NCBI RefSeq assembly: GCF_011075055.1
Contig: NC_058145.1
Coordinates: 756,887 to 820,886 of the forward strand
Length of the DNA: 64,000 nt
Direction: 5' to 3'
Origin: Mangifera indica
Lineage: Eukaryota > Streptophyta > Magnoliopsida > Sapindales > Anacardiaceae
In this document: piece by piece, positions 11,434-57,175 of the stretch
How positions within the stretch are numbered: position 1 is the first letter of the stretch
How the letters are laid out: each line of letters opens with the position of its first letter
Notes under the pieces: generated by a model
Databases searched by the model: none
Told to the model about the DNA's origin: nothing
The model's input: only the letters and a program-made list of their open reading frames with translations
Program-made: the position numbers and the translations under genes

Positions 11434-14085
11434 CCCTAATAAAAACCCTAGCTCAAAATAATTCTTTTTTCTTAAAGATTTATTGCAAAATGTAAAACTG
11501 CTCCATAAATTTCGAAATAGCTTACCCAAACAAAGGAAAGACAGAGACAGCGTTTGAAGAAATTAGGAAAGCGACATTTTTAGAAAGGAAATAGCAGTTG
11601 ATTTGTGGGAAAGTTCAAAATTTTCACTTGAAAATAGAACCAATGAGAAGAAGCAGAAGTGAAAGTAGGACTGCGCCGTTCCTGAAGACCAGGGTTTGAG
11701 AAAGAAACAGGGCCTTGAAATTTATGTGGTGAGTGATTAGCGGCTGCCGTTGTCCTTTCTAGGACTTTTCATTGAAATTTGTGGGAGCTCGAAACGTGGC
11801 GATATTCCCGCTTTGGAAACGATATCAGTGAGCCCGGGTGCATTCAAAAATGCTTTGGAAATGGGATTGGAGAACAACTGGTTGGGTGACGAGGACGATC
11901 AGGTCACCAGACTGTTTAACAGTAGTGGGGGGTTTGCAGGTAATATTTAAAATAATTTTGTCTAATTAATTATTACATAAACACACATATATATATATAT
12001 ATATATGAATGATCGAAATAATTTAAACTTGAATTGATGATATACATATTCAAAATTGATATTTTTTGTATTAATTGAATCAAATCGGTTGAATCAACCA
12101 ATTCACTCTAGTTATTAAAACCCATAGGATTCAACCATGCCAAGCTAAGTTCATGCATGTAATTTTGGGCAAAATCAACAAAATGCACGTTCATGTATCT
12201 TCAACACAAACTTGTGTATCTACTGGTTCAAGCACATGAGAAAAATTCGTCATTCAATCACATTGTGCTTTATGAAAAATTTAAAGAGAAGGTGCATGCC
12301 CATGCATAGACAAAAATTCAAGAGTTTCGGTTCTTGTTCCTTTCCCATTTGAATCCTCATTCATGCCTATGGAATTTTTGGAAGAATATCACATATATGG
12401 GCGCAATGTTTGTGCCTACATTTTTCGAAAAGAAAATTCGACTATTAAGAGCTCTGATTGAGGTTTGACCAAGTGCGGAAAAGTAAAATTTTAAATAGCA
12501 CACGTATGTGTATCTTGGCTACACGCTCGTGTATAAGTCAAACTATGAAGAAAACTCTACTTTCAAAACTCAACGAATCTATTATCCCAACTAATAATCA
12601 TATGAGCTATTTTAATCATCCAAAACTATAAATTGAAAACTCTTTGATACGGAAAAGGTATGTAAAATCATATACTACAAAATTCTCTTTAAAGCTTACA
12701 ACTCATTTATTTAAGAGAAACATCTACACTCATTCTTTATATTAGCCTTTGTAGAGACATTTACAATCATTTTTCTATATTCAAACACTTAGATGAAATC
12801 TTAGATAAACCATTGTGGTGGGCACAAACTCAAATAACCAGTATACGTGGACGAAATCCTGAAAAGCTATTATAAAGAGATGTTATCTTTATGAGTAAAA
12901 CTTCAAACCACTATAAACTATTGAACACTTCTTTTCCCTACTCTCGTTACTTTAAGCTTTATACATGTATTTTATGTTTAAATATCTTGATGAAATTATT
13001 TATTTGGTTGATTTTGAGTATAAATTTATTTAAAACAATTAATTTGATTTAATAATTTAAATAATTCTATTCATTCCACCAAGGATTATTAGTCATTTAG
13101 GGTTTTTCAATTAATTGTGGCTTAAAAATAATTTAATTTGAGCTAATTTGAATTTGAATGTTTAAAATTGATTAAAATTTAATTCATTTTATGGAAACAA
13201 GCATAATTTATATCTTAAATTTAACTCATTTTATCTAAGTTTGAATTTTTTTTTTCTAATGAAAAATCTTGTTCAAGTCAGAGTGTCTTTTAAGGGCGAA
13301 ATCAACTAACCAAACAGGACACAAACTCCAAACCTAATAACCGATCACACAACTATTAAATTAGATAAATTAAAAGTTCAGTTCTGATATGTCACTAGAG
13401 GAAACTTGTACCCATACTTTCTTATACATGAAATCTCCTTTTTTACCATTCAAATTACCTCTTAAGAATATTCAAGCTTGAATTTAAACTTAAATAAGTT
13501 CAATCTACCCTAGTTGGCTTGCCTTGGCTCTTTGAGAAAAACATGCAAAATGGTTTTTAAAAATAATAGTCAACCAAAAGTGATATTACATTTAATTTAA
13601 AATCAATTAATTATGTGATAATACTCAACCAAATACTTAAAATTTGGTATCCAAAATTTTAATAATAAAATATATACAATCATTATCTTCATAATCTAAG
13701 AGGATTATGATTTATGAATTTCTTTTTTCTCTTATAAATTTCAACCATAAATTGTTGCCATGACTTGTGAGTTGTGATCTCATTCACCATAGTGGTTAAG
13801 ACTTTTGAATCATAAGTTAGTCGAAGTTAATATACAAAAAATGATTTTGAGGCATTTAGAAGCTCATGTCCCTTGGTTTCCTTCAGTAAAGATTAGTTCA
13901 AATTCGGTTTGAATACAAATTCATCAATTTGAGTTGGAATTCAATTTGCTCAAGTTGGCCATTTAATAATATTCAAGAGAAGAAGCAAAATCATCAAAAT
14001 ATAATCATTGACAAAAAGAAATCTAGTATAACATTGCCGCCGCTAAGATGCTAATCTCAATGAGATGACAATTTTATTAAATAAA
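11434..14085. other. Intergenic region between the carrier gene and the zinc-domain cluster, left part
   Basis: The first 300 bases are the 5' UTR and promoter side of the carrier. 11750-11950 is a GC-richer open stretch on the plus strand ending in a donor-like GCAG/GTAATA, but it has no recognisable protein. About 12150-12560 contains words such as CACGTATGTGTATC and ACACGCTCGTGTAT, reminiscent of plant Gypsy LTRs, without LTR ends. The remainder is AT-rich spacer. Confidence 0.4.
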
Positions 14086-14335
14086 GGCCAAAAGACTTAT
14101 TCTCATTTAAAGTTTGGTATATTTTCAAACTCTTAAATATCTACTATTTTATTAAAATTTTCTATTAGAGTTAAAAATAAAACTATTATTTGTTTAAATT
14201 TTTTATTAAATAATAGTTTTATCATTAACCTTGACAGACAATTTTAACATAAGGATAAATATTTAAGTTTTTAAAATTTTACATATAAAAATTCAGAAAT
14301 ACACCAAACCTTCGGTTGGAATAAGTCTTTACACC
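14086..14335. mobile_element. Mutator-like MITE, GGCCAAA family, short copy with perfect 9-bp target duplication
   Basis: The element is 250 bp. The left end begins GGCCAAAAGACTTATTCTCA. The right end in reverse complement begins GGTGTAAAGACTTATTCCAA, and both continue into AAGTTTGGTATATTTTC-like sequence. The flanks are identical 9-mers TTAAATAAA at 14077-14085 and 14336-14344. The interior contains an inverted pair of AATAGTTTTAT-like blocks. It has no coding capacity, so mobility would need a transposase from elsewhere. Confidence 0.85.
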
Positions 14336-14344
14336 TTAAATAAA

Positions 14345-15519
14345 AATGATGTGTTAAGCTTACTCCAACGATATCAACAACTATAATTAAGCTTACTCCA
14401 AAATCTAACCCTACTGGTTTGCAATTGCTTTGCTCTTTGGGTTGAATAATTAGTAGCTACGGAGTATCTGTTCATTAATTTCATAATTAATCTTGCATAA
14501 TCATTGAGTTCATCCATGTATAGGGCTGAATTTACACTACACCAAATTCAAATAACAATTGGTTTAAGTTCGATTTAAATTCATAATAGTTAGATCAAAG
14601 AATGAGTACTATCTTTATTAAGATAAATAATATTGTTAAATAGAAACTTAAACTTGAAATTAACTTAAATCAAATCGAACACAGAGTTAAGCCAATCTAA
14701 CCCTATCTGTGTACTTATAAAACATATGCCTTGTTTCATCAATGCAAATATAATATCCAAATGCTACGGAAACGTAAAAATAGAGATGCCCACACGCTTT
14801 TCCTAAGAATATGGAAACGGAAACGGAAACGAAACGCGGGAAAAGATATAACTTCTTGAGAAACTCTTTTCACGAAAGACTGATTCATAGACCATCACCT
14901 CTACAGCTTAATCTTCATCTTCTTCTCCATAGGCATCCTAATGTTTCTATAGTGGGTAACTTGGTATTAATATAATCACATATAATAGGTCAATCTAAGA
15001 GCCAATTTACGACATCCTAACTTAACAGCATTCAAACACCCCAAAACACTCTTATTATCCAAAATAAACTCCATGGCCGATTTATTTATTTTTTTTGTAT
15101 ATGCACATCATCTTTTCTCATTACACAAGAATGTGAAACGGCAGGGTGAAGATTGAAGACGATTCAGATGAATATGAAGATTGAAGAAGAATACAAACAC
15201 GAAGATTGAAGAATAACACACCAGATTCGACTGAGACTTCAACCCGTCGGAGAGGAAGTTGAGCATCAGAGTCGGAGATAGCGAGGAGCTGAGACGTACG
15301 CTTGGGATGGAGAGGAGTGTTAGGTAATTGGATAATTCGGAATAAGGAATAAGCATATCTTTGGTCAACGTTGCATTATCATAGTACTGGGTGTCAACTT
15401 TAGATTTTATTGTCATATATAAAACAAATTGTTTAGAAATACCTGAAGTGAGCAGTCAGTTGTAACTGAAAAAGCACAAGCAGCTACCTTAACTGCCCGC
15501 TTCTTTCACTTTCTCCAAC
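14345..15519. other. Spacer and upstream region of the zinc-domain cluster
   Basis: AT-rich spacer grades into a GC-richer block (about 15100-15330) that includes a 102-residue minus-strand frame with no domain. The last 100 bases form the proximal promoter of the first cluster gene and are similar to the same region before the second gene (about 17000-17090). Confidence 0.45.
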
Positions 15520-15528
15520 TATATAAAC
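15520..15528 (+). promoter_or_regulatory. TATA box of cluster gene 1
   Basis: TATATAAAC lies about 100 bp before the ATG in a block, CTCCAACTATATAAACTAAC, that is conserved before gene 2. A transcription start near 15550 is expected. Confidence 0.6.
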
Positions 15529-15620
15529 TAACATTGATCCTCAGAACTGTCACGAGATTTTCTCTGAGAAGAGCTTCTTCTTCTTCACTGGAGAGCACTT
15601 ATTAAATTTCCGAAGTTGCA

Positions 15621-16612
15621 ATGGCAGATGACGTTCTTCCGGAATTTGATTATGCTCTCCGCTTGCCGATCTTCTTGTGTCAACTATGCCATACCCACTT
15701 TGCAATAAAGATGCAAGAAAGGCTCACAATAGTAATGTCTCTCTCTTTCTTACTTTCTAATTCTATTCAATGACGTTTGTTCATAATTTTCAGAAAGTTT
15801 CTCCATACAATCCCTACTGTACAGTGTTAAACCATCATGGTTTCCTTTCTGTCTGTATTAATCTTAGTAAAAATTCTTTAAGGGTTTCAGGGTTTCTTGA
15901 ATCTTGACTTATTGATCACATGGATGCACCTTTCTTGTCGATCTTGAAGCCTTTCAGGAATTTGTGATTTTTAGAGGGAACGACATTTCCTGCATTTCTT
16001 GATGAAACTATTGTTTTCAATGCATTTTGCAGAATGTGGAGCGACTGGCAATTTTCTTTCCACCATTAAGATGGTAAGAAAGATATCTTCTTTATCTATA
16101 AACAAATTTTCCATATTTCTTCCTGAAGAGAATCTGAAAATATACTTCTGATGAGTCTGTCATGCAGTATCAACTTGCTGGTTGATCCTCCAGAGAACCA
16201 CTTTCTTACTCAAACTTCAAATACCTGGGTAGCACGGGTGTTTTGTACAGGATGCAACACGATGATGGGCCACAAAATTTTATATATATATATTCTTTTC
16301 TATAGATCAGTTTTCCTTGATTTTCTTGAACATTTTTCTGTTCCGAAAGTGGGTTCAAATCTTAAAACTTGTACAGGTTCATGAAGATAATCCCGATCGT
16401 CCGCATCAAGAAGGAACGGTCATAATGGATGTGTAAGTTTTTGGAGACATTCAAACTTACATCCCTCTTCTTGGTGGGTTCTGAAGCTGACAGAAAAATG
16501 TTATTGTAGGAACTTGGTGCTGTTGTGGGACGGTCATGAAAGTCCTCAGTGCCCACAATTGCTTGTCGACAGAGGTTATGGGCAATTAATTGCATGCCAA
16601 CTCCGAACTTGA
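15621..16612 (+). pseudogene. Zinc-domain cluster copy 1: single Yippee-like domain, splice donor lost
   Basis: Exons by comparison with copy 2 are 15621-15731, 16033-16073, 16168-16279, 16377-16432 and 16510-16612. They would give about 140 residues with CQLC near residue 20 and CTGC in exon 3, the two knuckles of a Yippee-like zinc domain. The donor after exon 3 should be ATT/GTATAT as in copy 2 but reads ATT/TTATAT, with no usable GT before the next acceptor. Without splicing the frame ends at 16384. The second domain is gone: after the stop, 16630-16790 still matches the intron and exon border of copy 2's second domain, so this copy was once two-domain. It may still make a truncated protein. 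Promoter and 5' UTR match copy 2. Function is unknown. Confidence 0.6.
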
Positions 16613-17082
16613 CAGAGTTTCGAAAATTATATGTCCACTACCATAGTAAGATATCCCTTCATGTTACTCAGATTTTGGTTTCAGACTTGGATATTATGTT
16701 GAGTGTGCACTTTAAGTTTTATAGTCATGATGAATTATGTGTAGTATCAACTTGAACATTCAGCCCTCACAGCAGCATCGTGGCGATGTTAGCACCATTG
16801 TTGTCACTTTGGACACAAAATCTGTTACGATTTTGGTTTTAAGTTTTGCGATGCAGAATACACCTTGGCAATTTAAAAGGTATATAATCAATTTTATCAC
16901 GTGTGCCTTGCAGTGTGCCTTTCCTGTATCAAGTATTTATGTATATTTCACATTAATTATAATAACAAATTAAAAAAGAAAAAAAAGGAGATGTTTATTA
17001 ATAGTCAAAAGTCAGAAGCCAGTTACAACAGAAAACAGAACCAACTGCCTTAACTTCCCGCTTTTTTCACTGTCTCCAACCG

Positions 17083-17089
17083 TATAAAC
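17083..17089 (+). promoter_or_regulatory. TATA box of cluster gene 2
   Basis: TATAAAC sits in CTCCAACCGTATAAACTAAC, the counterpart of the copy 1 promoter, about 165 bp before the start codon. Confidence 0.6.
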
Positions 17090-17253
17090 TAACACTCTCC
17101 GATATCAGAATCCTTTAAGATTCAGTAACGCAGTTGAAATCTCAAAATCAAGATTCAAGATCTGCCGCAGGATTTTCTTGGAGAAGCACTTGTACTTCTT
17201 CACTTGAGAGCACTTACCAAAGTTCTGAAGATTTTTCGTCGACCAAAGTTGCA

Positions 17254-19047
17254 ATGGCAAACAACAATGATGTTCAGCAGTTTCGTTATGATTCAGGCGA
17301 GGCATTCTTCATGTGCGCAAGATGCTTTACCCACTTTGCTTCGCTGTCAGTAGAGTGCAGATTGGTAATATTTACATCTCTTCTCTTCTTTCTGATGCTA
17401 TTCACTTGCTTTTGGTGCTACTAGTAGCTTACTTTACTGTATGTTTGCGAATCTTTCTTTACTTATCAACATCAAGAATAGTGTGAAATAGGATTACTTA
17501 ATTTAGGGTTTTATGGTTTCTTGAAATAGACATAGAATCCTGACTGAATTGATCGTATGGACTCACATTTCTAGCCGATCATAAAGGGCCTCTCTCTTGA
17601 TTTTTGTTTCTTATAAACTATCTGATTTGATAATCTAGATGACCATTCTTTTCAATGCATTTTGCAGACTTTCGTGAATCATACAATGTTATTTCCAGAA
17701 TGGTAAGAATTAACTGATAAGTGAAGTAAATTTCATAATTTTTTTTTTTGTATATTAGCTTCATTATAATTATGATAAATTATGCAGTAGAAACTTGGTC
17801 ATTGACCCTCCAGAGAACCAGTTTCTTGATCCGAACGGCACTAGCTGGAAAGCATTTGTGTATTGCCGAAAATGCTACACAATGATCGGCATCCAAATTG
17901 TATATAAAGTTCTCTTCATTTTCAGGAATAAATTTTTTTCTCCCAATGGAGTTCAAAGCTTGCTTATGGTTATGTTACTTGTCCAGGTTCGTGAAGATAA
18001 TCCCAATCATAAATATGAAGAAGGGACAATCCGTCTACATCTGTAAGTTTTCTGAAGTAGTTTATGGAAGACATTTCAAGTATACATTTTTTATTTTTAT
18101 TTTTTGTAAATTTCTGATAGGACCAAGACGCTGTTTTGGAATGGTCACAATATGTTTTCTCTGATGCAACGGCTGCCAAAGCAGCCTCAACTGCCACCAC
18201 ATGAAGATCAGCGTCCAGTTTTCTTGTGTAGAGTATGCAATACCCAATTTGCTTCGAGACACGGAATGTCCCAAATGGTAAAATCTCTATCTCTTTTACT
18301 CTTTTTGATCTTTTTCGTTTAATAAAATTTGCTTGATCTATTTATTGTTTACAATGCATTTTGCAGGATATAAAGACTACTGGCATTTTCTTTACAAACT
18401 AGTGAGATGTCCCTTCATCTTTCCTCAAATTTTGGTTTCTGACTAAACTTGTAAGCCAAGAAATTTTCCTAACTATTGTTTACGACTATGATGAATTATG
18501 TAGTGTGAACTTGGCGGTGGTTGATACCGCAGACCACTATTTTCAACATCTGAACAGCCCTACAAGACTAGCATTTGTGAAATGTAGCAGATGCAACGAG
18601 ACGCTGGGCATGAGAAGTGTATTTTTTTTTTTAAATTTTGTTTCAAGAATACTTTTTCATTTCAAAGTGAGTCAATTTTGTGAGCTAACTGTTACTTGCT
18701 TGTCCAGGTTTCTGAAGATAATCCGGATGTCGTAGAACAACAAGGAACTGTTGGTCTGGATATGTAAGTTTGGAATTGGTTGATTTATGGAAGATATTCA
18801 AGTATATTATTATTTTGTAGGTCTGATAGAAAAATCTTATTGTAGGACTTTGGTGAATATTTGGAATGGTTCTGGTCATGAGGTGTTTACTTTAATGAGA
18901 TATGTGCCAACACCAATGATACTGCCACCATTACAGCAACTACATCAACCACCACCTCCACCACCCTCCCCTACAACCGGCACTGGCAATGGCCACTTGA
19001 GTTCGGCTGAAATGCAGCAGTTGTTGCAGAGTATATCTTTGAGTTGA
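17254..19047 (+). CDS. Two-domain Yippee-like (beta-tent) zinc protein, intact cluster copy 2
   Basis: Nine exons join in frame: 17254-17364, 17668-17702, 17788-17899, 17987-18042, 18121-18277, 18367-18401, 18504-18618, 18708-18763 and 18846-19047, giving 292 residues with all junctions GT-AG. Each half has a first CxxC (C21/C24 and C141/C144) followed by T(H/Q)FAS, then a (N/S)xxxW or NSPT segment leading to a second CxxC (C75/C78 and C196/C199) followed by TxxG. A VxEDNP turn, an EGT strand and a WNG tail follow. This order resembles Yippee, Mis18 and cereblon CULT domains, which bind one zinc through two CxxC knuckles. The similarity is my inference from motif spacing; no plant family name is recognised. 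Introns fall at equivalent points in both halves, indicating internal duplication. The C-terminus is a proline-rich tail. There is no signal peptide or membrane segment, so it is likely nuclear or cytosolic. Confidence 0.75.
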
Positions 19048-19370
19048 CTTGGACTTGGCAGGAAATTGTAGGACAGGCTGGCTATCTCAGTTTACAAGCA
19101 ATTGTAGCAGTGGATTTTTCTTTCATTTTAGTTTTAGTTGTTTCAGTTCACATTTGCATTTGGTTGATTCTCATTCTGTTTGTACTCTAAACAAACTGGG
19201 ATGAAAGCTTACTCTAGACATTGAGACAATGGGAAATATCCTGTGATGATCATATGCTTTCTCACATTGTTCCTTTTATTTCTGTCAGATTTGAGCTTCC
19301 ATGTGTGTTCTTTTTTGTCAGGGTAACAATTATGATACATCATTTTAATACTGTGTATAGGGCTGTATTA
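19048..19370 (+). other. 3' UTR and flank of cluster gene 2
   Basis: The segment beginning GAAATTGTAGGACAGGCT is matched after copy 3 at about 22306-22430, including TTCTTTCATTT and GGTTGATTCTC words. The duplication unit therefore included the 3' UTR. No other feature is seen. Confidence 0.55.
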
Positions 19371-19624
19371 TTCTGACACAGTATTACAAGAGCCCAAAAA
19401 TTGCCCATGGAGATGGGTGGTGGTATTTTGGAGTCTGCTTGAGCCAAATTCGCCTGGCATCTCCCCCGCATACACTTACAAACTTCCTCTCATATGTGTC
19501 CATGGCGTTTTATAATCACCACTGATCTCAACTTTTGAGTTTTTTCCCATGAACATTACACTAACAACTGCTCAAAGGAAAATGGAATCAGATGCATTTT
19601 CAATTTTCTCATAAAAGCACATGG

Positions 19625-20130
19625 ATGGCACTTGCTGCCCGCCCTGTTCACTCCTGCTCTGCCTTCGCTAAAAGGGTGTCGAATATGAGCTTGTACCCGT
19701 TGATGTTTTCATTGGCGGGCATAAAAAACAACCTTATCTATCTCTAAATGTGAGAAGTAGAAAACAACCATTTTTCTTACTTACTATGGGAAAAAGTGCT
19801 TCGAATACTGATCAAACACAATTTGCATTGATTTTGCTATAGACATTTGGGAAGATTCCTGCACTGTTAAGATGGAGATATCAAAACTCTTTGGTAATAT
19901 TACAACTTTTTTTGCGAAGATTTGTTTTCACAAATCTTATGTGTTGGTGCTATCTTTACAGAATCAAGAGCCATCTGCAAGTATCCGGCAAACACATACA
20001 AGGACAAAGGAAGTAGAGGCTCTCTAGTTTGATGGTCCAATAAGAGTGCTTATTCCATAATTAGTCCTGAATCCACTAAGCAGGAAAGTTCCTGATGACA
20101 CTGAGCTTGGAAGTTAAGCTTGTCGTCCCC
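19625..20130 (+). pseudogene. Phi-class glutathione S-transferase pseudogene
   Basis: Exon 1 remnant (to 19749) encodes KGVEYELVPVD and GGHKKQPYL, as in phi-class GST N-termini, but is preceded by an in-frame stop. Exon 2 remnant (19843-19893) begins TFGKIPAL, followed by a frameshift into DGDIKLF. Exon 3 remnant (from 19972) encodes ESRAI with substitutions (C, K and P where R, Y and I are usual), then a deletion, then EVEAL-stop-FDGPI and VLNPLSRK. Phi GSTs conjugate glutathione to electrophiles. This copy cannot encode a full enzyme: it has several stops, frameshifts and a missing C-terminal half. It lies between two zinc-domain copies. Confidence 0.75.
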
Positions 20131-20328
20131 ATTTTAAGCAATAGATTATAAAAACCCTCAAGAAAACCTGTCGAGTCCTGCTCAACTATTTTAATTCTAG
20201 CTTGACACTGTATGTTTTTCTATGTTCCATTTTCAATTTTCACCTCGCTTGACTCTTTTGTGAGATTATACCAGCTTTATTTCAGTCTCCTTCAGAATTT
20301 TAATAAAATGGTGGTGCTTTTTCCGCAG

Positions 20329-20485
20329 ACTCAAGGGCCATTTCCAGGTACATAGCCAGCAAACGAATACAAGAACACAGGTAATGATTTGTTAAGATCA
20401 AATAGTCCCAAGGAGTCAGCGATTATAGAGACTCGGATGGAAGTTGAAGCTCAGCAATTTGATGGTTCAGTAAGGATCAAATTGT
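20329..20485 (+). pseudogene. Second copy of the phi-GST third exon, abutting cluster copy 3
   Basis: After a CCGCAG acceptor the sequence encodes DSRAISRYIA, a frameshift, then NDLLRSNSPKESAI and METRM-like EVEAQQFDG, typical of phi-GST residues around the glutathione site and first C-terminal helix. The intron end before it (GGTGGTGCTTTTTCCGCAG) resembles the one before the 19972 copy, so the exon was duplicated with its intron border. Homology fades near 20485, only about a dozen bases before the ATG of zinc-domain copy 3. The join has replaced that gene's original leader. Confidence 0.75.
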
Positions 20486-20498
20486 TGGGAAAGTTCGA

Positions 20499-22096
20499 AT
20501 GGCAGATAACGTTGATCTTGAGCGATTTGATTACGATTCAGGCTTGCCAATCTTCATGTTTGCAAATTGTCATACTCACTTTGCTTCTCCGCCAGGAGAG
20601 TGCACAACAGTAATATCTCCATTTCTTCCTTTTCTCTGTACCTGTGAGAATCTTTCTTTGCTTATCAAAATATCAAGAAAATTGTGAAATTCGATTCCTT
20701 AATTTAGGATTTTATTGTTTCTTGAAATTTGACCCAGAATCCTGTCTTTATTGATCATATGGACTTGCATCTCCGGTTGATCATAAAGGGTCTCTTTCTT
20801 GATTTGATCAAGTATTTACTTACATTTCTTGAATAATTTCATCGTGGATTTTTGTTACTTATAAACTATCTGATTTGATGATTACTGTTTTCAATGCATT
20901 TTACAGAATTTAATGAAACGGACAATTTTATTTCCAGAAATACAATGGCACCAGTTTCTTCATTGCAATGGCACTGCCTGGCACGCAAGGCTGTATTGTA
21001 GACTATGCTACTCAGAAATGGGCTTCCAAATTGTATCTTCTTTTTATAAAGTTTTTCTCATTTTCAGGAATACATTTTTTTCTTTTTTTGGGTTCAAAGC
21101 TGGTAGCCTTACGATTATGTTACCTGTCCAGGTTCGCGAAGATAATCCCAATAATACAGAAAAAGTAAGGATGTTGGTCTACATATGCAAGTTTCCTGAA
21201 GTATATATATATTTTTTAAAATTTCTGATAGGCCCTGATAGGAAAAACTTATTGCAGGCCTATGATGCTGCTTTGGAATGGTCACGATCTGTTTGCTTTA
21301 GCGCAATGCCTGCCGAAGGAGCCTCCACTGCTACCAAATCAAAATGCTGAGCCACTGTTATACTTGTGTAGAGATTGCAATACCCAATTTGTTTCCGATA
21401 ATGAACTGTCCAGGATAGTAATATCTCTATCTCTATCTCTATCTCTGTTAGTCTGTCGAATCCAGTTTACTAGCCGTTTGTTTATAATTTTCTGTAAATT
21501 TTTTACCAAATTAAGAACTTCGATTCATTAATTTTGCAGGATTTCAAGGTTCCAAGAATCTTCTTTGAAACCAGTGGGATATCCATTCCTTTTTACTCAA
21601 ATTTTGGTTTCAGACTCAACTTTTTTAGACATTGGCACGAAATATGTATACAGACGTGTCTACTGAATTCAGCTTCTTCATAATTATGATGAATTATGTA
21701 GTATGAACTTAGTAGTAGATCCCCTAGGCCACCATATTCCTCATATGAATGGCACTATGTGGCTAGCAATTGTGAGATGTAGTGGATGCAACAAGATTCG
21801 GGGCATGAGAATTGTAATCTTTTTAATTGAGATTTCCTTTACTTTCAGGAATACTTTTCCACTGCAAAGCGAATTAATTTTGCAAGCTAATTGCTATGAT
21901 ACTTGCCCAGGTTTGCGAAGACAATCTAGATGATGTAGAACGACAAAGAACTGTTGGTTTGGATATGTAAGTTTGGAAGTGGTTGATTCATGGAGATATT
22001 CAAGTATGTTATTTTTTGGTAGGTCTGATAGAAAAATCTTATTGTAGGACTTTATTGAATATTTGGAATGGTTCTGTCATGAGGTGTTTTCTTTAA
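20499..22096 (+). pseudogene. Zinc-domain cluster copy 3: rearranged, second domain frameshifted
   Basis: Exon 1 (20499-20609) keeps the 37-codon length, but the first knuckle cysteine is phenylalanine (MFANC). Exons 2 and 3 are fused by a deletion (20907-21032), losing the segment between TILFPE and the domain core. The usual donor of exon 4 reads GCAAGT one base out of frame, but a GTAAGG 22 bp upstream (exon 21132-21164) with the acceptor before 21232 keeps the frame through 21417. Exon 6 (21540-21573) is one base shorter than in copy 2, so splicing to exon 7 (21702-21813) meets TGA; reading through instead ends at 21683 (about 199 residues). Exon 8 is 21911-21966. Exon 9 (from 22048) has a one-base loss in NGS and stops at 22096. 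Degraded or sub-functionalised; transcript evidence would decide. Confidence 0.65.
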
Positions 22097-22164
22097 TGAG
22101 ACGCTTGCCAATGCTAAAGGACCTGCCCCAGATTCCCGCAGACTCGTCCACAACCAGCACCCGC

Positions 22165-22265
22165 AACGGTTCCTGAAGTTCAGTTGAAAGCACCCCCAAT
22201 GTTTCCTCAAGTTCAGTTGAAAGCACCTCCAATGGTTCCTCAAGTTCAGTTGAAATACTACAGTG
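22165..22265 (+). repeat. 33-bp tandem repeat in the former coding tail of copy 3
   Basis: Two full units and a partial unit of AGTTCAGTTGAAAGCACC-type sequence follow each other. In the ancestral frame each reads SSVEST(P/S)N(V/G)SS. It lies beyond the present stop and has no counterpart in copy 2. Confidence 0.7.
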
Positions 22266-22780
22266 ATCACAGAGGATAGCTTAAAAGTTGAGTTGGACTT
22301 GGCATGAAATTGTAGTACAGGCTCATGCACTCAGTTGACAAGCAGTTGTGGCAGAGGATTATTCTTTCATTTCAGTTGCAGTTGTTTCAATTTACAATTG
22401 CAGTTGGTTGATTCTCCTTCGCTTGCTATCACCACGGAACCAACAACTTTGTATGCTTTTCCCATGTTACTGCCCATGTCTCAATGATTCACCTTGAGTC
22501 GTGACATTTAGATGAACCAAATTTGAATAAGGAGCTGCAACTTTAAACAGGAGGGCAGGCTGAGAAGAAAGGCATCAAGGAATAACACGAGCAATTGAGG
22601 GGTTTAGAGGGCTCCGGCATAGGGGGAAAATGGCATTGTTGTAGCTAGGATCCATTCATATTTTGTTAGCATTTAATCAGAATAAACGCAGTACACTTGG
22701 GCTGTATTTCTTTAGAATCAATCATTAAAAGTCATTTCCAATTGAATTGAGTTGAATAACCCATTGTTAGCATTTTGCAG

Positions 22781-23213
22781 GATATGGTGAGTCCGTGAGA
22801 CTTTTTCTCAGAGGTGAGAAATCCCTTCATCTATACTCAAATTTTTGTTTCAGATTTATTAGCAGAAACTTAGCTTGGTAATATTGATGAATTATGTGGT
22901 ATCCAATTGGTGGCTGAGCCCCCTGGGCACCATTTTCTTCATCCGAATGGCACTACGCGGCTAGTACATCTGAAATGCAGAGGATGCAACGAGGTGTTGG
23001 GCATGAAAATGGCAGTATTTTTACATAGTTTTCCTTTTACTTGTTTCAGGAATATTGTAAGCTAATTGTTATGTTTCTTGCCCAGATTCATGAAGAAGAT
23101 CCTCATTATGGATTCCAAATAGGAAAAGTTGGTCCAAATATGTAAGTTGGTGGAAGTTGTTAATTCATGTTTCAACTATATTTTTAAGTCTAATAGGATA
23201 ATCTTATTGTAAG
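22781..23213 (+). pseudogene. Zinc-domain cluster copy 4: relic of one domain
   Basis: Only second-domain exons remain: about 22781-22815, 22910-23011 (HHFLHPNGT, then CRGC and GMKM) and 23086-23141 (a 56-bp exon like the others). The acceptor before 22910 reads GG instead of AG, the donor after 23011 is GC, and the final exon breaks off at TTATTGTAAG near 23205. There is no start and no first knuckle. Confidence 0.7.
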
Positions 23214-26200: not shown

Positions 26201-28862
26201 GAGTGGTATGTAGTTATAGGTTGATTTGAAATTCAAGTAAAATTCTTTTCATTCAAAATCTTATTATGATTGAATTTCTCAGTAAATTTGTATAAATTAT
26301 AATTTTATCTTTTTTTTAATTTAAAATTTTATTTGTCAGGGAGGAGAAAAAAAAATCTTAAAAATATAAAAAAATTACTATTCAAAACTAGAAAAATTAA
26401 TATTGAAGTAAATTGTAAGTTTTTTAAACTAAAGAGAAAAATTAAATAAAATTTTAATTTTTTAAATAATTTTAATTAAATAATAGTTTTATTTTTAACT
26501 TTAACAGAAAATTTTAATAGAATAACAAATATTTAAGTTTTTAAAATTTCACGTATAAAAGTTTGGAAATAAATTAAACCTTAGGTGGGAATAAATCTTT
26601 TGTCCTATTTATTATTTTCAAGTTTTGAGTAATAGTGAAGAAAAAGAAAACCCTAAAAAAAAAAAAAAAATCCCATGACATTTAAGATTTTTATTTTTAA
26701 AATATTTTTTAAAAATTTTATATTAGAGTAAATTACAGTTTCCATTTAAGGTTTGGTCTATAAACACTTTTCCGCACTTAAATGACATAAAATAATACTT
26801 TCTCATATAAAATTAAATTTAGTGTAAAAAATATTGATAGCATAAAAATAAAATAATAATTTTACCATCAATTAATTTTGAAAAAAAAAAACTAAAATAG
26901 CTTCTTTATAAATAAAACTCAAACATTTTAAATATAAAAATTTAACTCTTAAAATGATTAAAAACTCACAAATTAGTACTTAAAATATTTTAAAAACCCG
27001 AGCCATCGGCATCACTCATTCACAACCGTCATGATTTTACCATTGCTAACCCTTATCATCATCTCTTTCGTAGTTATAGATAGGAGTTGTTGAAGACAAT
27101 CTTCAATTGATTGATTCAAAGATGAATTGATCGACTAAAAGTTATCATCAACAACAACTTTCGCTCAATGAATCGATTGACAATTGATTCATCAATTGAA
27201 CTAAAATTGACTAATTAATCAAAAGAAACTGAAAGAAGAGGACCAGGGGAGAAATCAACGACGGTCTAAAACCAATAAGAGAGGATGAACGAGGTTAAGG
27301 TGAAACAAAAAAGAAATACATGAGTTTTAATGTAATTTAGATATTTAAAAAGTTTTTAAAAATAAAATAATAGAGATTTCAGTTCTTGATACTGTCTTTT
27401 TTTAATTAATAAAATTTAATTTTGGATGAAAAATGTTATTTATGTTGCCTAGGGGTGGACACTTTTTTAGGCCAAACTTTGGGTGGAAAAATGAATTTAG
27501 TCATTGTATTAATTTTTCAACTTATGTCAAGTATTTATTCTCTTACCCAAGTCAACGTAAATTAATTTCTTGCATAAATTTATTACTAATAATTTGGCAT
27601 GAGCCAGATTTTAATTTCTATTTATGGCCAATAAATAATAATAAAAACATGGAAATGTTTCCCAATAAGAGAACAACAATAATTTCAACAAGTACAAAAG
27701 AACAAAAATTTTATAATAAATTCAAATATTTAAATTTAAATTGATTTAAATTAAATTTAAAATAATTTTTTTCAAATAAATTTTAATTTTAATTTATTAA
27801 TTAGTCTTTAAAATAGAGATAAGATTATTTTTATAAATTAAATTCAGTTTAAATCGATTTTCATATCTGTACCTCTATTTTTATTTTTGTATTTTTGCAT
27901 TTAGAGCTTGTACTTTACGGCAGGAACAGAACACCTAAGAACAAAAATATTTAAATCGTAATTATAAATTAAAAATAATAAAATATAATATAAATTTTCT
28001 TTTTTGTTTTGAAACTTTTTAAACAAAATTCTAACTAAACGATGACTTGTTTCACCCGCTCGGTACGGCACCAACTTGGGCTCCACCCACCGCAATTTGA
28101 GGCTACTCGTGTGGGCCTAAAAGAATGCCACGTGGCACTTCAATATCATACAAGTGACAAATGTTTACCTTGCTAAATTTAAAATAAATTCTAATAGGAG
28201 AAATGTTTTCAAACCCGGGTCTAAGTCTTGATTGATCTGATTAATAATTAGATCGATAATAAATTAATTAACCATTAAAATTTATTGAATTAAAAATAAT
28301 TGTAACTACTAATACAAGAAGTTGAATTAATTCGATTGGATTTATTTGATCAATCAAATTAGTAATAAATGCATATACAATAAAACAATATTTAATCGAA
28401 TTAAATCCTTATAATTAACAAGAATTGAATTAGTTTAACTAAAATATTTTATCTAATTTAGTTTGGTTGATCGATTCATCCACTAAATATTTATGTTATG
28501 AAATAAATCATGATTAAAAACTTTAATTAAAAGAAATAAAGATTAGACGTATAGTTAAAAGTCAAAATAATATGTTCCTTGAATATTCACAAAATAATAA
28601 TTATAGACTTATGATAATGTGTTAAAAAGTGATTTGAGCGTTACTCTCGTTACATCACTGTATGACAAAATTCCATTCAACTCTTAAGGCCCTAAACTCC
28701 GTTACATGTAACGGAGGCTTTTAGGAAATTAATAAAAAAATAAAAAATACTACTGCAACAGAACTGGCAGATATTCAGTCATCGCCGGTCAAAATCTGCC
28801 GAGAAACCGGCGAGCAAAACGGCGATGACACTCACTGACACTGTCTTCATTTTATTTTACTC
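23216..28862. other. Intergenic AT-rich region with repeat fragments and one GC-rich island
   Basis: No gene is supported. A truncated GGCCAAA-type MITE end lies near 24230-24302 (CTTGGGTGGAATCAAG..TTTTGGCC), and another end lies near 26565-26612. A GC-rich island occupies 25480-25740. Low-complexity tracts and diverged copies of A/T-rich MITE interiors fill the rest. The 101-residue plus-strand frame at 25023-25328 has no recognisable motif. The last 200 bases are probably the CRF 3' UTR. Confidence 0.45.
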
Positions 28863-29927
28863 TCACAAGAAGAAATCGTCGATGTCTTGGAAATAGTCAT
28901 CTACTCGGCATGGAGACGACGGAGAAGAGGAAGCAAAATCTTGAGGTACTGTTTGGAGAAACACGTCATTCGAATCGTCGTTGAACATACTGTGGTGAAA
29001 AATCGGGACGTTGTTGTCTGCCAAAAAGGACAGTTCGGGAGCTGGAAAATCGCTGAAAAACTCGTTGATTGGGAAAGGGAAATCGTCAAAGAAACCAGCT
29101 GATTCTTTACACAAATCCGTCGTCGTTTCACCTTGAAACTCCACCATCGTACCTTCTTCTTCGGGTTTTTGTTCCAGTTGTTCGAGTTCTTCAGAAAAAG
29201 AAGAATGAGTTCTGAAAATGAGAACAGAAGTTGGAGATGAAAGATTGTGACCATGAGACTCATCACCCGATTCGAAACCCGAAACTGCAGACGAAATATT
29301 GATTTCGGGTTTTTGAACTGGCGGTGTGGGGAAATTTGTGAAAGCGTCCGGGCCTCTTAGCTTGATGGCTTCAATATCATAAACCCTTGCAGCTTCTTCA
29401 GCTGTATCAAAAGTACCCAACCATACCCGTACACGTCTTGCAGGATCTCGAATCTCAGCCGCCCATTTTCCCCAAGGCCGTTGCCGAACACCGCGATACT
29501 TCTTTCCGTTATTTGTCGAACGTCTTCTGCAATCCACACCGTCAGCGGCTCTCTTCCGCTTGCTTGCAGTGGCAGTAACGTTACTGGGCTTACTGCTACT
29601 CGGCTCGATTTTGATCTCATTCACAAAGCGTTTCACCCGCTGGCGGCCAAACAACTCTCGTTCTTCATCACTGGAAGAGTCCGTGGCGTCGCCGTCGGTC
29701 AGAGATACCCGTACGACTCTGGGGATCACTGAAACAGGGCTGTTTTCCGGGAGATTGCGATCATCGGAAAATCCGTTTCTGGGGTTTGAAGAGGCTGGTT
29801 TAGTGAACTTCTTGGTAACGTTTCGGTGTTCAGTGTATTTAACAGGACATGGAAAACTCATAGTCATAGCTCTTTGGTCCATTTTGATGCTCTGAAAATT
29901 TTTTCTCACAGATTCTCCTGACGGCAT
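28863..29927 (-). CDS. CRF4: AP2/ERF transcription factor, cytokinin response factor (CRF4-like)
   Basis: Intronless, 354 residues. An N-terminal CRF domain (about 28-113) contains [25 protein letters not shown] and [14 protein letters not shown] single AP2/ERF domain spans about 143-200, with [19 protein letters not shown] and WLGTF; alanine 14 and aspartate 19 of the domain mark the ERF type that binds GCC-like elements. A C-terminal SSPTSVL motif, a possible phosphorylation site, is conserved in CRFs, and the tail is acidic. The CRF start could also be M16 (MDQRAMT, 29882), which resembles relatives more closely. CRFs act in the nucleus downstream of two-component cytokinin signalling. Position between MTM1-like and UBC9-like genes matches At4g27950 (CRF4). 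Confidence 0.93.
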
Positions 29928-30396
29928 CGAAAGAAAGAAAAGAAAGGGCGAGAAAACAGAAATGAATCTAAAAAGTTAAAACCCAGGAAGATTTAAGACT
30001 GAAAAACAGAATCGAATGAATTTCTCTAACTCTGTGACAGAGCTTTAAAAGGGGCCTGAAACGAGCGAAGAAAGGCAAGTGATTAACCTGCTTGTACAGA
30101 ACTTTCCTGGAATACAACTAAAAAATTAAGAAGTTTCCAAAACAAAAAATTTCTAAGATTTTCATATCAAACCTAGAAAAACAAGTCCTTAATACCCTCT
30201 TAAATGGACCCAAAAACATCGGAAGTAAAAATCAGAAATATCTGAAGAAGATGATGATGAAAAAGAAGGAAGAAGAAGAAAGTCTAACAAGTGTACGGAA
30301 CGAGATTTCAGAGACTTGTCAGTGGGAAGCGAGTTCACTGACTGGGAGATGAAGCAGAGTTTTAGTTGCGGAGAAGACCAAAACACGGTAATCGCT
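29928..30396 (-). other. Probable 5' UTR of the CRF gene
   Basis: GC-richer than the flanking spacer and lying between the TATA box and the start codon. The minus-strand frame across 30189-30422 begins upstream of the TATA box and is not taken as a gene. Confidence 0.4.
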
Positions 30397-49776: not shown

Positions 49777-51488
49777 ATGAACCGGCGAGTCCAAATTGAT
49801 GAATCACAGCATCCGAAAAACGACGCCGTTGACGATGGAGATGATAGTTCGATGAAAACAAAACCATCGGAGAAGAAAGGCGACTACATCGACGTGCCTT
49901 CTCATCCGTACTTAATGAAGATAATGGAAAAGCAAGGTAATAAAATTTGTGTTGATTAAGTGTTTAATTTGCCTAATTAATTGCTATGTTATGATTTGTT
50001 TAATTTTAGGGTTCCAAGATTTGGTAATTCAATTGTTGATTATTTTTATTAGCAACGCATTGGTAAATTCGATTGAATTATTACTTGAAATGTCCTAGCT
50101 TAACAGAAGGTAATATAACAAAATTGTAGATCGTTTTCAACCTGGCTTTTTTGGGATCATTTTCACATATAGATGGGAAAAGATTAAAACTAGAATGAAT
50201 CAAGATTATGAAGAGCTGCGTCCATTATTTCTATGCTATAAATTTTTGTATAATGTTTTGCGTTCCAGACCTAAATTGTATGCTGTATATATCATCTTGG
50301 TTTGGGTGAGAAAACGAGCAAATGAACAAGTAAAATTGTTGGGTTAACCACATTTCTTTCAAGCACAACAACTTAGTCAAAGATCGAAACAAATATGCAC
50401 ATTGTCAAGCCCATGCATAAGGGACAGAGGTTCATTTTGTTGGTTAGTTTTCCCTTCATTGATGGAGGGAGTTTCTGATTGGAACTGGTACTCATTTGAA
50501 AGTTTTGATACATATATTTTAAATTCTTGTTTATTTACTAAATGGACTTCATATTTGATTTTTGCAGGTGACAAGCAAGTTCTTTTTGCTGATAAAGTTT
50601 TGAAGTTCACTGGTTCTGGGAAGACGAAACATCGCATTCTTTTGATTACTAATTTTGCTATTTACCTTGTTGACCCTGATACTGCTGCAGTTAAACGCCG
50701 CATAGCTCTGGCAGCTGTTGAGAAGTTATCTTTGAGTGAACTAAGTGATAACTTTTTTGCAGTTATCATTCCATATGAATACGACCTACTCATGGCTAGT
50801 ACTCGGAAAACTGAAATTGTTACTATGTTAGTTGAAGCTCTTAAGAGTGAGTCAGTGCAGCTTGAGGTGGTTTTCTCCAATAGGTAAACCTAAGTAATGC
50901 TTCTGCTACCTCTGTTCATCGTTATACACTTAAGTGCATGCTCAATTCCTAGGCTTTATAGTGGACTTGAGCACTCTGTAATTGTGCTTGCATAAAGTGG
51001 TCAAGGCTTGTCTCACTAGCATGTGGGCTTGCCTCATTGAAACTTTAGAATCTGTGAGAAATTTTCTGGTTTTATGATGATTTGAATAGTTGTTTTATTG
51101 CTGGAGCTTTTATGTACTTGTAAACACCAATGCCAATTCTAGGATAATGAAACTGATATAGTTGTCATCATGGCACTGTTAAAATTACAGTGAATGTACG
51201 AATCTTTCTATTTGTTTTGATTCTATGTTTGATTTATTGTTCTTTTTGACTAATTATGCCTTTTCCCATATTTTTTCAAGGTTTGAGTATAATGCAACTT
51301 CTGATTTGGTGAAGGAAGTTCAATTTGAGGAAGTGGAAGGTCTTTGTTCCTGAACTATTAGAGTTGTTCTCATCAGTTATAGCTCATTTAAAGATTTGGC
51401 TATGACCTGTGCTGGTTTTATATGCTTCTAATTCATATTCTTTTTGTGTGTTGCAGGTGGTGTTAAGACAAGAATTCTGACAAGATAA
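49777..51488 (+). CDS. Small myosin tail-homology (TH1)-like protein
   Basis: Four exons (49777-49936, 50568-50883, 51281-51339 and 51457-51488) join in frame to 188 residues. The first about 50 residues are acidic and polar. The rest resembles the class I myosin TH1 domain: GDKQVLFADKVLKF, then HRILLITNFAIYLVD, a basic KRRIAL stretch, and SLSELSDNFFAVI. In type I myosins this domain has a PH-like fold that binds acidic phospholipids. A stand-alone plant TH1-like protein would therefore be expected at membranes, but no role is known to me. No signal peptide or transmembrane helix is present. The third exon uses a weaker GTCTTT donor. Identification rests on domain resemblance. Confidence 0.8.
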
Positions 51489-53662: not shown

Positions 53663-55560
53663 CTAGTTTTCGGTACTCACTTGCCCGATTTCCTCCACCA
53701 TTTTGACTACCTCTGACATTTTTGGCCTCTGCTCTGGCATTCTCACAACACAAGCCATTCCTATTTGCAACATCTCCACCATTTCCTCTTCTATGTTTGG
53801 GAACCTCAAAAGTGCCACATCAAACACTTCAGCAGTCCACTCTTCTCTAACCACAGAATTCACCCACCTTACCAAATGAATAACCTCATCACCACTTGTG
53901 GCATGTATAGGTGACTTTCCTGTGAGAAGCTCAAGCAGCAAGACTCCAAAACTGTATACATCAGACGCCTGGGTTGCTTTTTGACTGTCTGTTACTTCTG
54001 GGGCACGGTACCCTGCAGCTCGCATAAGTGGTGGTGGTATTGGATTCATCAGTGTTGCCATACCAATATCAGAAACACAACCATACCCTTGAGGGTTGAG
54101 GAAAATATTTGAGGTTTTTATGTCTCCATGGACAAATTTCCCACCATTTTGTGTATGAACATGAGCTATGCCTCTTGCTGCACCTATTGCAATTCTCAAT
54201 CTTGTCTCCCAATCTAAAGATGTCCGTCCCTCCCCTCTTCTACCTGCAAACCACAATGCAAAAATATAAAACAGCATCTTTGAATGAATTGATACAAGAG
54301 ATTAGACAAAATAACTGCAGTTTTTAGCATACCATGTAACATTGTTGAGACACTTCCTTGACTATAATAATCATAAACCATAAGCTTCTCATCCTTGGAA
54401 TAGTAATATGCTCTTAATGAAGTTACATTTTCATGCTTTAGATTTCCCACCACCTCCATTTGTTGTTCAAACTCTCTTTTGCCCACATTCACTTCCTTCA
54501 GCCTCTTCACCACCACCATGGTTGAATCCTCTAGTGCTGCTTTATAGGTTATCCCAAATGTGCCCTTCCCAAGCACCTCAGCAGAGGCCCTCAGCAGATC
54601 CTCCAAGTCAAACACAAGATTACAACCCTCAAAGAACACAAGACTGTTGTTCTTATCTTGACCCTCAGAGGCCCCTGCCTCCATTGACTTCTCTTTCTTT
54701 TGTGATTTCATTGGCAACCCATCTTGACCTTCGTTGTGAGAACAGAAATAGAAAATTAAAAGAGCAACTAGCCCAAACCCCAGGACACAACCCCCTATAA
54801 TCAACGCTAACAACACATGTTCATTCAGTTTTTTGCTTTTTGTCTTTGTTGGTGGTTGAATTGGAAGAGCTGGAGGAAGGGCTGTTTCTGAGGAAACATT
54901 GTTACCAGCAAATGCTCCACTTGGGAATTTTTGAAGAGAGTGAGGCAAGCTTCCAGTGAGGTGATTGTTGGATAAATTTAGCAATTGCAAACTGGGAATG
55001 TTGAGATCAGGAATGTCACCCGAAAGGGAGTTGTTAGCGAGATTCAGAGATGTCAGGTGAGTCAAATATGATAGTGAAGAGGGGATATGCCCATTGAAAT
55101 AATTGTTTGAAAGATCAATAACTGCAAGACTCTTCCAAACTGAGAAATCTGACGGCAATGGACCAGAAAAGCTGTTGAATTGAAGGTTAAGGGTGGACAA
55201 ACTATGCAGTTTTGAGAAATCAGAAGGAAATGAACCTGAGATACTATTGGATCTCAAACTCAGATTTTGTAATGCAGATAATCTGCTAATTGTGTTGGGT
55301 GGAATTGGACCTTGCAATGCAAATCCAGGCAACCAGAGGGCTATTACTCTGGACCTATCTTTACTGCATGTCACTCCAGTCCATAAACTGCACATTGAGC
55401 TATTTTCATGCCAATTGAGAGAGCCTGGATGACAAATGTTACCAAGAAATTCCAGTAACGCTCGTTTATCTTCAACTGGGTCAGCTATAACAGGCAAGAA
55501 ACATGTTCCCAACAAGAAAATTGCAGAGAAAACACACAAGAGGTTCATCTTTTCACTCAT
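53663..55560 (-). CDS. LRR receptor-like kinase, probably catalytically inactive (At4g23740-like)
   Basis: Two exons (54333-55560 and 53663-54243) encode about 602 residues. A hydrophobic signal peptide near [14 protein letters not shown] is followed by an LRR N-terminal cap (WTGVTC), about five leucine-rich repeats, a single membrane helix ([20 protein letters not shown]) and a kinase-like domain. The glycine loop [11 protein letters not shown] and the lysine in VVVKRLK are present. The catalytic loop reads HGDIKTSN rather than HRD, and DFG is replaced by DIG, as in LRR-III receptors annotated as probable inactive kinases. Such proteins usually act as co-receptors or scaffolds at the plasma membrane in development or immunity. 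The intron position in the kinase domain is typical. The stop falls right after VSTEN, a little earlier than in relatives that have a serine-rich tail. Confidence 0.93.
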
Positions 55561-57175
55561 TTTCTCAGTCAACAAGTGTGCAGCTAACTAGTTAAACTGT
55601 ATTGAAGGTGAAGAGTGAGTTTGTTTCTGCAAATCTGGGTCACATCTACATGAAAATGGGTAAACAAGATGAATCAGAGTCAAGAAAATAAACACAAGAA
55701 GTCTGATTTCTGATTACAAACTAAAGCTATTCAAGTCATACACGTTTCATCGACAACAGTGGCTAAGTTAGGTTCAGTTGTTTATTGACTTTCTTTCACC
55801 TACTTTGTTTGGTTGCCGAGAAAAAATATGCAATCAGAAAAGGAATCTAGAATTTAACCTCCATACATTCCATCATTAACACAAAACAAAAAAAGAATAA
55901 ACTTCTTACTTGCTTGCTTGAGTCCAGAATCCAGATCACATCAAAACGCTCACTACCCAGAAAGCTTTACAGATTCAGAAATACATTGAAGCTTCAGCCA
56001 TCTTCAAGAACGTTGAGTCAGTAAAATGGTAAACAGAAAAAGGGTCGAAGAAAGAAGAAAGAAAGGAAGCGTAAATGAAGCTGTTGTTGCTTGAAATGGC
56101 AGCATCACATGCAAGAAACCACTTTGATAATCATTGATAAGACTACACATATATAAATAATATGATAGCGCAGGAACAGGAAGCTGCATGTGGAGACAAA
56201 GAAAAGAGAGGCAGCAGTTATCGAGGGTTGCAGTTTCGGAAACTATTTGTATTTTTAAAATAATAACTGCGACCAAACGTGGGACACACAGTTTAACTTC
56301 GTCAGAGTTTAAATCTTCTTTTTTATTACTTCTGTTCTCTCTGTGTTTTTGTTTCTTGTGTTTCCGCCATTGTTGCCTTGTTTCGAGCTTCAAGATCAAA
56401 TATTATTTCTAATCATCCTCGTTATTGATCTCATATAAGATAAATATTTCATATGCATAATTGACTTGTTATACATGATATTTAAAAATAATTAATACTT
56501 TAATTACTTAAGTTACTGATGGATTTATACCGAGTTAAATTAAAAATGATTTAAATTTGATTTAAATTTATAATATTATATTAAATTATTAAATTCGAAT
56601 TTATATTATATTATCATAAAATTAAATAATTTAAATTAAAAATAAAATAATTTATTATTAATGTATATAATATAATCTTCAAAAATTAAATATTCAAAAT
56701 TCTAAACGTGATTTTGTATTAATAGGAACCAAATAAAATAATTAACTTAATTGTTTTATTATTAATGAAAAATTAGATAATCAAATAAAGTACTGATTCG
56801 AATGAGATTCAAATTCGGGTTATGAATTTTAAAAATTATTTTTAATATATATTTTTTTATAATGTAACATATGCTTTATAATATTTTATATTTTTTTATG
56901 AGATTATGTTAAAAACATGTACAACTTTTGTCATCCTGGTGAAACAAAATAAGGGTCTTGAGTCTTCTTTGACCATGTCATGTGATCTTCTTTTATGTTC
57001 ATACACATTGTGACAAATTAAATTTTACCCTTAAGTTTAAAAAAAAAAAATTTATCATAAGCTTTAAACGTTTTAAATAAGTGTCCCTGTTGTTATTTCA
57101 TAGTGCCTAATCTGAATAGCAGTGTTTCATAATCAGATTATATATTAATCTAATGAAAAAGACAGTTTTTCATTT
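55561..57175. other. Upstream region of the receptor kinase, then AT-rich spacer
   Basis: 55561-56110 is probably leader, perhaps with an intron (an acceptor-like TTTGCAG on the minus strand lies near 55627). A TATA-like TTATATATG on the minus strand lies near 56150. 56160-56410 has moderate GC and no domain. 56410-57175 is AT-rich spacer. Confidence 0.35.

What the first reader, a model, noticed from the sequence alone, without database searches (positions are those of the whole stretch)
15621..23213. Tandem cluster of a two-domain Yippee-like zinc protein not matched to a named plant family
Four head-to-tail copies share a module: CxxC-TxFA, a segment leading into a second CxxC-TxxG, a VxEDNP turn, an EGT strand and a WNG end. 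The two CxxC knuckles flanking a beta-rich core resemble Yippee, Mis18 and CULT domains, but the module is duplicated inside one protein and carries a proline-rich tail. Motifs and exons are seen; fold and zinc binding are inferred.
Basis: partly seen in the sequence, partly recalled or inferred. Interest (0 to 1): 0.8.

Follow-up and report, generated by a model that had tools for sequence, protein, structure and literature searches.

The report
Double Yippee gene cluster in mango
A small cluster of mango genes, of which only one still looks whole, encodes a protein made of two fused, strongly altered copies of the Yippee zinc domain, an ancient domain found across plants, fungi and animals whose job in plants is poorly known.

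Summary
The window is mango (Mangifera indica). Four head-to-tail copies of one gene lie at about 15.4-23.2 kb, but only copy B (17254-19047; 9 exons, 292 aa) is intact; A and C carry lesions and D is a fragment. The module is a divergent Yippee domain: B passes Pfam PF03226 (31.6 bits, cut-off 26.6), and a profile of mango modules alone finds human YPEL5 as its best solved structure (E 2.4e-5). Its profile also matches plant YPELs (hhalign 96.1%). Domain 1 of a mango paralogue is modelled with the beta-tent fold of Mis18, YPEL5 and cereblon, helped by canonical rows in the alignment; domain 2 has no good model. One exon holds parts of both domains, so the fusion is real. Unusual: five of five readable modules keep the two CxxC pairs but lack the GWxY signature that supplies half of the proposed aromatic cage. 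Two protein searches found two relatives, both mango. Most likely reading: a fast-evolving double Yippee, so far seen only in mango, acting as a zinc-stabilised protein-binding adaptor. Homology is well supported; function is inferred.

The parts
17254..19047 (+). Copy B, intact gene: 9 exons 17254-17364, 17668-17702, 17788-17899, 17987-18042, 18121-18277, 18367-18401, 18504-18618, 18708-18763, 18846-19047; 292 aa, two Yippee-like modules
   Evidence: spliced by hand, GT-AG at 8 of 8 introns, open frame; from TFVNHT to the end identical to public P0001
17254..18184 (+). Module 1 of B (spans exons 1-5): Cys 21, 24, 75, 78
   Evidence: location; PF03226 16.8 bits alone, below cut-off; Cys positions
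18121..18277 (+). Exon 5 of B: holds the WNG end of module 1, the linker and the first CxxC of module 2, which shows that the fusion is in one exon
   Evidence: the same joined order in C exon 21258-21417 and in protein P0002
18197..18915 (+). Module 2 of B (spans exons 5-9): Cys 141, 144, 196, 199
   Evidence: location; PF03226 best stretch 138-227 of the product, 20.3 bits alone; Cys positions
18916..19044 (+). Pro/Gln-rich C-terminal tail of B
   Evidence: translation; little conserved in P0002 apart from a short S-S-x-E-M-Q stretch
15621..16612 (+). Copy A: readable module 1 (140 aa), broken donor (TT) after exon 3
   Evidence: PF03226 16.6 bits, below cut-off
16644..16754 (+). Scraps of A's lost module 2 (exon 6 end/intron 6 and exon 7 start)
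   Evidence: BLASTN to B 18400-18444 (E 4e-8) and 18488-18513 (E 0.003)
20490..22420 (+). Copy C: decayed two-module copy
   Evidence: BLASTN collinear with B; lesions; its readable pieces are 80% and 87% identical to P0002
22770..23211 (+). Copy D: fragment of a second module, exons 22900-23011 and 23086-23141 readable
17009..17094 (+). Upstream block of B shared with A (15446-15533), with a TATA-like GTATAAA (A: TATATAAA)
   Evidence: 80.7% over 88 columns, sequence; promoter role inferred

Best explanation
Copy B is one of two mango genes known here that look intact (the other is known only as the predicted protein P0002, LOC123221947, on another contig) for a divergent double Yippee protein. 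A Yippee/beta-tent module was duplicated inside one gene. That gene was then copied in tandem, and three of the four copies in this window decayed. Each module is expected to fold as a beta-tent of two beta-sheets held at the apex by one structural zinc on four Cys (four conserved Cys: shown; zinc: inferred). The GWxY residues that form half of the proposed Yippee ligand cage are gone, so the modules most likely do not bind the canonical ligand. They most likely act as a protein-binding adaptor, the two linked modules forming an in-chain pair like the Yippee dimers of Mis18, or like YPEL5 docking on a partner such as the WDR26/CTLH ubiquitin ligase (inferred by analogy). Confidence by step: Yippee homology 0.95; B a real coding gene maintained for most of its history 0.8; beta-tent with structural zinc 0.85; adaptor without the canonical cage 0.35.
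Against: No expression, zinc or interaction data. P0001 (22.3 bits), P0002 (21.8), copy A (16.6) and the single modules (at most 20.3) fall below Pfam's cut-off, and module 2 of P0002 alone has no PF03226 match at E 0.1. In the PDB profile search two cytochrome c sequences (E 0.006, 0.03) rank between YPEL5 and Mis18 (E 0.09); their match is confined to the stretch around the first CxxC. The good model relied on an alignment with canonical YPEL rows over domain 1; with only the two mango proteins the prediction fails (pLDDT 30), and domain 2 is modelled at low confidence. B versus C omega 0.76 (0.49-1.19) is not clearly below 1, module 1 versus 2 within B is 0.93, and exons are less alike than introns (483 of 638 against 619 of 763 aligned positions; my sums), which fits weak constraint. 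In the tree copy A's module 1 does not group with the other first modules. Only mango relatives were found, so conservation across species is untested.
Confidence: 0.62

Rival explanations
1. The cluster is a decaying family: B is a recent relic on the same road as A, C and D and has no current function.
For: Three of four local copies are broken; exons diverge at least as fast as introns and omega for B versus C is compatible with 1; the two relatives found are both mango.
Against: B keeps its splice sites, its frame and eight Cys; the neutral simulation, which leaves out indels, gives 0.02% for all of this at 0.10 changes per site and 1.4% at 0.05; a second apparently intact copy, P0002, exists on another contig at 53% identity with the same architecture.
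Confidence: 0.22
2. The genes are under diversifying selection, for example as adaptors or decoys whose partners change fast, which explains tandem copying, quick decay and exons changing as fast as introns.
For: dN 0.30 and dS 0.40 between B and C against about 0.22 in introns (the intron distance is my computation from its counts); 53% identity of two apparently intact copies in one genome; the internal duplication is older than the split of B, C and P0002 in the tree.
Against: The omega interval 0.49-1.19 includes neutrality, C is a pseudogene, and gap-flexible intron alignment inflates intron identity. No site test was possible with the DNA of so few copies.
Confidence: 0.15
3. It is two neighbouring single-Yippee genes wrongly joined by splicing models, as may be so for some two-Yippee predictions in other plants.
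For: P0003 (Brassica napus), P0004 (Lithocarpus) and P0005 (Aquilegia) are predictions with two Yippee-like stretches that may be fusions of neighbouring genes (my reading of their sequences).
Against: Exon 5 of B (18121-18277) itself encodes the end of module 1, the linker and the first CxxC of module 2 in one open stretch; the same order stands in C and P0002.
Confidence: 0.04
4. The module belongs to another zinc fold (RIG-I C-terminal domain, zinc ribbon) and the Yippee match is chance.
For: PF11648 RIG-I_C-RD at 23.2 bits, just under its cut-off of 25.6; for P0002's module 2 alone it is the only match listed (13.3 bits, E 0.095).
Against: RIG-I_C-RD shares the beta-tent fold (PMC4287342, passages) and also hits a canonical plant Yippee typed from recall (17.9 bits); YPEL5 is the top solved structure with most of the module aligned.
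Confidence: 0.02

Closest known systems
Canonical plant YPEL (protein yippee-like At4g27745 type; PF03226)
   Same: Collinear module with C-x2-C, a conserved N, and a second C-x2-C-x4-G, and an HKYEEG turn in B module 1 close to the canonical QKYKEG; hhalign 96.1%
   Different: Usually one domain of about 106 aa, highly conserved (81-90% to the first of 13 plants), with GWxY; the mango modules are doubled, have a WNG extension and a tail, and lie on a long separate branch
Human YPEL5 (PDB 8qbn), yeast Moh1
   Same: YPEL5 is the best solved-structure match by sequence profile (E 2.4e-5) and a fold match for domain 1 of P0002
   Different: Single domain; CTLH/WDR26 docking not testable here; Moh1 not compared here
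Mis18 alpha/beta Yippee domains (7sfz, 9a8g, 5hj0)
   Different: Pairs form between chains that carry a C-terminal helix; none is confidently predicted in the mango protein. Mis18 is said to be absent from plants (PMC4287342, passage)
Cereblon CULT domain
   Different: The positions equivalent to its W99/Y101 hold no aromatic pair in any of five mango modules (with the mapping given)
Solanum chromosome 3 YIPPEE gene cluster (PMC8358227)
   Same: Physical cluster of Yippee genes in a flowering plant (passages); 7 of 10 sRNA-targeted YIPPEE genes there were expressed in endosperm
   Different: Not described as two-domain proteins in the passages seen; sequences not compared here

Membership tests
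Yippee-Mis18 (Pfam PF03226) | Score above the curated cut-off (26.6) | tested here: met
   Met by copy B, 31.6 bits with two stretches. Not met by P0001 22.3, P0002 21.8, copy A 16.6 or single modules, at most 20.3
Yippee-Mis18 (Pfam PF03226) | Two CxxC pairs about 52 residues apart (PMC13329494, passage) | tested here: met
   Spacing 50, 51 (B), 53 (A), 52, 50 (P0002): 5 of 5 modules; 52 in 109 of 120 listed YPEL hits
Yippee-Mis18 (Pfam PF03226) | Beta-tent fold | tested here: met
Yippee-Mis18 (Pfam PF03226) | Zinc bound by the four Cys | not testable with these tools
   Only conservation of the four Cys is shown
Canonical YPEL subfamily | Strict YPEL consensus with GWxY (consensus recalled, then checked) | tested here: not met
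   106 of 120 listed hits match the full consensus and 114 have W.Y; 0 of 5 mango modules have W.Y
Canonical YPEL subfamily | Groups inside YPELs in a tree | tested here: inconclusive
   7 mango rows form their own 100/100 clade on a long branch apart from 12 canonical rows; the sample is mostly At4g27745-type and the root is a midpoint
Cereblon CULT | Aromatic cage with W99/Y101 equivalents | tested here: not met
   I.I, M.S, H.I, Y.I, M.I at these positions; mapping from PMC4287342
Mis18 | C-terminal assembly helix after the Yippee domain | tested here: inconclusive
   Tail of P0002 modelled without helix but at pLDDT under 40
CTLH/WDR26 adaptor (YPEL5-like role) | Physical docking on WDR26-type propellers | not testable with these tools
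   Analogy only

The most novel reading that the evidence does not exclude
Mango (perhaps its family) evolved a new Yippee class: two cage-less Yippee modules fused in one chain, an in-chain counterpart of the Mis18 alpha/beta pair or a bivalent YPEL5-like E3 adaptor, under fast evolution and turning over by tandem birth and death.
Probability: 0.25. Interest if true: 0.55.

Novelty: new variant of a known kind. Interest (0 to 1): 0.36.

Why it matters
Canonical plant YPELs are highly conserved (81-90% among 13 sampled plants), and finding the endogenous ligand of Yippee domains is called a key challenge (PMC13329494, passage). A natural version that keeps the zinc scaffold but drops the GWxY cage, and fuses two modules, shows which parts of the domain can be freed from constraint and offers a direct test of the aromatic-cage hypothesis and of Yippee pairing. 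If B is only a relic, it still shows how a frozen family escapes and decays. It also corrects a public gene model (LOC123225625) that joins unrelated pieces.

Tried and rejected
Own-genome search for further Yippee loci: the genome search gave no answer in 8 tries, so the DNA and surroundings of P0002 and mango's canonical YPELs were not examined. Structure without canonical rows was uninformative, so it neither supports nor opposes the fold. A model of domain 2 guided by canonical rows was not possible, because they align to domain 1. NCBIfam gave nothing above cut-off for P0001 and P0002. PDB by single sequence gave 4 chance-like hits up to E 10; the profile was needed. RIG-I_C-RD considered and rejected as a separate identity. 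Two-gene mis-join rejected by exon 5. Positive selection considered; the data do not suffice. In one search I left out of the B-C comparison intron 2 (absent from C), all of exon 4 after its first 21 nt, exon 9 after its first 27 nt, and codons opposite gaps. Literature: seven searches. 'yippee' with 'mango' gave 2 papers, unrelated by title; 'two yippee', 'double yippee' and 'tandem yippee' have no occurrence in the 15 papers listed of 23. The library lacks most subscription papers, so this does not show that nothing is in print.
Full report
What is there. The product of copy B matches a public mango (Mangifera indica) protein at 100% over 87% of its length (P0001, LOC123225625), so the window is mango. 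It contains two modules, each with CxxC, a strand ending in N-L, a second CxxC-x4-G, EDNP, an EGT- or QGT-like turn and W-N-G. Exon 5 (18121-18277) encodes the end of module 1, a proline-rich linker and the first CxxC of module 2, so the two modules are fused in the DNA and not by a gene model.

The other copies. BLASTN against B shows A, C and D in the same orientation and order. A (15621-16612) has a readable module 1, but TT in place of GT after exon 3, a stop after module 1, and only scraps of module 2 at 16644-16754. I read it as a decayed two-module gene rather than a one-module ancestor; against this, its module 1 does not group with the other first modules in the tree (see below). C (20490-22420) has no intron 2, lacks 9 residues of P0002 (7 of B), has Phe for the first Cys, a one-base-short exon 4 with a GC donor and a one-base loss in the last exon. 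Its readable pieces are 80% and 87% identical to P0002 (LOC123221947, 315 aa), a predicted two-module protein on another contig. D (22770-23211) is a second-module fragment. The public model P0001 is a chimera at its start: it takes an exon at 11861, A's exon 2 in another frame than mine, A's exon 4, a stretch within 16734-16880, and B's exon 1 in a wrong frame running on into its intron.

What is unusual. A YPEL consensus that I recalled was checked on the 120 proteins listed (the best of 2173): 106 match it in full and 114 have W.Y after the second CxxC. None of five mango modules has it (I.I, M.S in B; H.I in A; Y.I, M.I in P0002), while the Cys spacing (50-53) is kept in all five. In the beta-tent analysis of PMC4287342 (passages) these W and Y are half of the predicted Yippee ligand cage. 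So the scaffold is kept and the cage changed. In a domain tree the seven mango rows form one clade (100/100) on a long branch apart from twelve canonical rows. The first modules of B and P0002 group together (97/96) and the second ones of B, P0002, C and D more weakly (87/74), so the internal duplication came before the split of B from C and P0002. Copy A's module 1 falls outside both groups (92/89 for the rest), and 8 of 16 inner branches are open.

How far it spreads. Two searches of 5.8 billion proteins, with the two-domain protein (131 candidates scored) and with a two-sequence profile (7988 candidates sharing most words scored), found two proteins at E up to 1, both mango. A search with a mixed single-domain profile that included one canonical row found 2173 proteins; the 120 listed are mainly flowering-plant YPELs, including Citrus and Xanthoceras, which belong to mango's order (recalled). 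Plant coverage is therefore broad, but I saw no other genus of mango's family among the names listed, so whether the class is mango-only or family-wide is open. Word-based candidate picking also limits these searches.

Is B a live gene? In a neutral simulation at 0.10 changes per site, 4.8% of 5000 runs stay free of stops, 0.7% also keep eight Cys and 0.02% also keep the splice sites; at 0.05 the values are 20%, 8% and 1.4% (indels not modelled, so generous to neutrality). P0002 points the same way. B versus A gives omega 0.61 (0.34-1.01). Against this, omega for B versus C is 0.76 (0.49-1.19), module 1 versus module 2 within B is 0.93, and exons are less alike than introns (483 of 638 against 619 of 763 aligned positions; my sums, parts of exons 4 and 9 left out). 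B was thus probably held for most of its history, but constraint on its residues is weak or the protein changes fast.

How it may work. Shown: two linked Yippee-type modules with eight Cys in four CxxC pairs, no GWxY, a poorly conserved low-complexity tail. Inferred: one structural zinc per module; a protein-binding rather than canonical-ligand role; the two modules pairing within the chain. Precedents are Mis18, whose Yippee domains pair back to back (PMC11315898, passages), and YPEL5, which docks on WDR26 of the CTLH ligase and blocks its substrate site (PMC12687426, passages). I put the adaptor role at 0.35.

Known or new. It belongs to the Yippee-Mis18 superfamily but fails the strict YPEL and CULT signatures, so I file it as a new variant of a known kind. 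A Yippee gene cluster is on record in Solanum (PMC8358227, passages). Predictions with two Yippee-like stretches exist in Brassica, Lithocarpus and Aquilegia, though these may be joined neighbours. The finding is real and pleasantly odd, but modest.

Noticed in passing
window 11861-17438: The public model LOC123225625 (P0001) begins with an exon at 11861, takes pieces of copy A and reads B's exon 1 out of frame; it hides the first CxxC of the gene.
   Followed up: yes
window 15446-15533 and 17009-17094: A and B share an upstream block (80.7%) with a TATA-like box (15520, 17082) and a T(T/G)CCCGC stretch (17055-17061; 15494-15500) that recalls E2F sites (recalled motif, not tested).
   Followed up: partly
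window 14117-14330 and 26444-26600: Self-complementary, AT-rich repeats of about 150 nt (82% alike) flank the cluster, with weaker matches at 48820, 57257, 5090 and 39227: MITE-like (label recalled).
   Followed up: partly
P0002 residues 270-315; window 22140-22279: The tail of P0002 and the end of copy C carry short Ser-rich repeats (GSSSSVE-like), of which B shows about one unit.
   Followed up: no
P0003, P0004, P0005: Predicted proteins with two Yippee-like stretches in Brassica napus, Lithocarpus and Aquilegia; P0003 and P0004 lack the end of the first domain, so they may be joined neighbours.
   Followed up: partly
window 28863-29975 (-), 53663-55587 (-), 50348-50887 (+), 61915-62436 (+): Neighbouring ORFs with Pfam matches: an AP2 protein, an LRR/kinase pair of ORFs, a myosin-TH1/PH-like exon and a DUF3143 exon.
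   Followed up: partly
window copies B and C: Introns of B and C differ in likeness (intron 1 85%, intron 8 94%, intron 4 64% of aligned positions) and overall exceed the exons, which could also reflect patchy gene conversion.
   Followed up: partly
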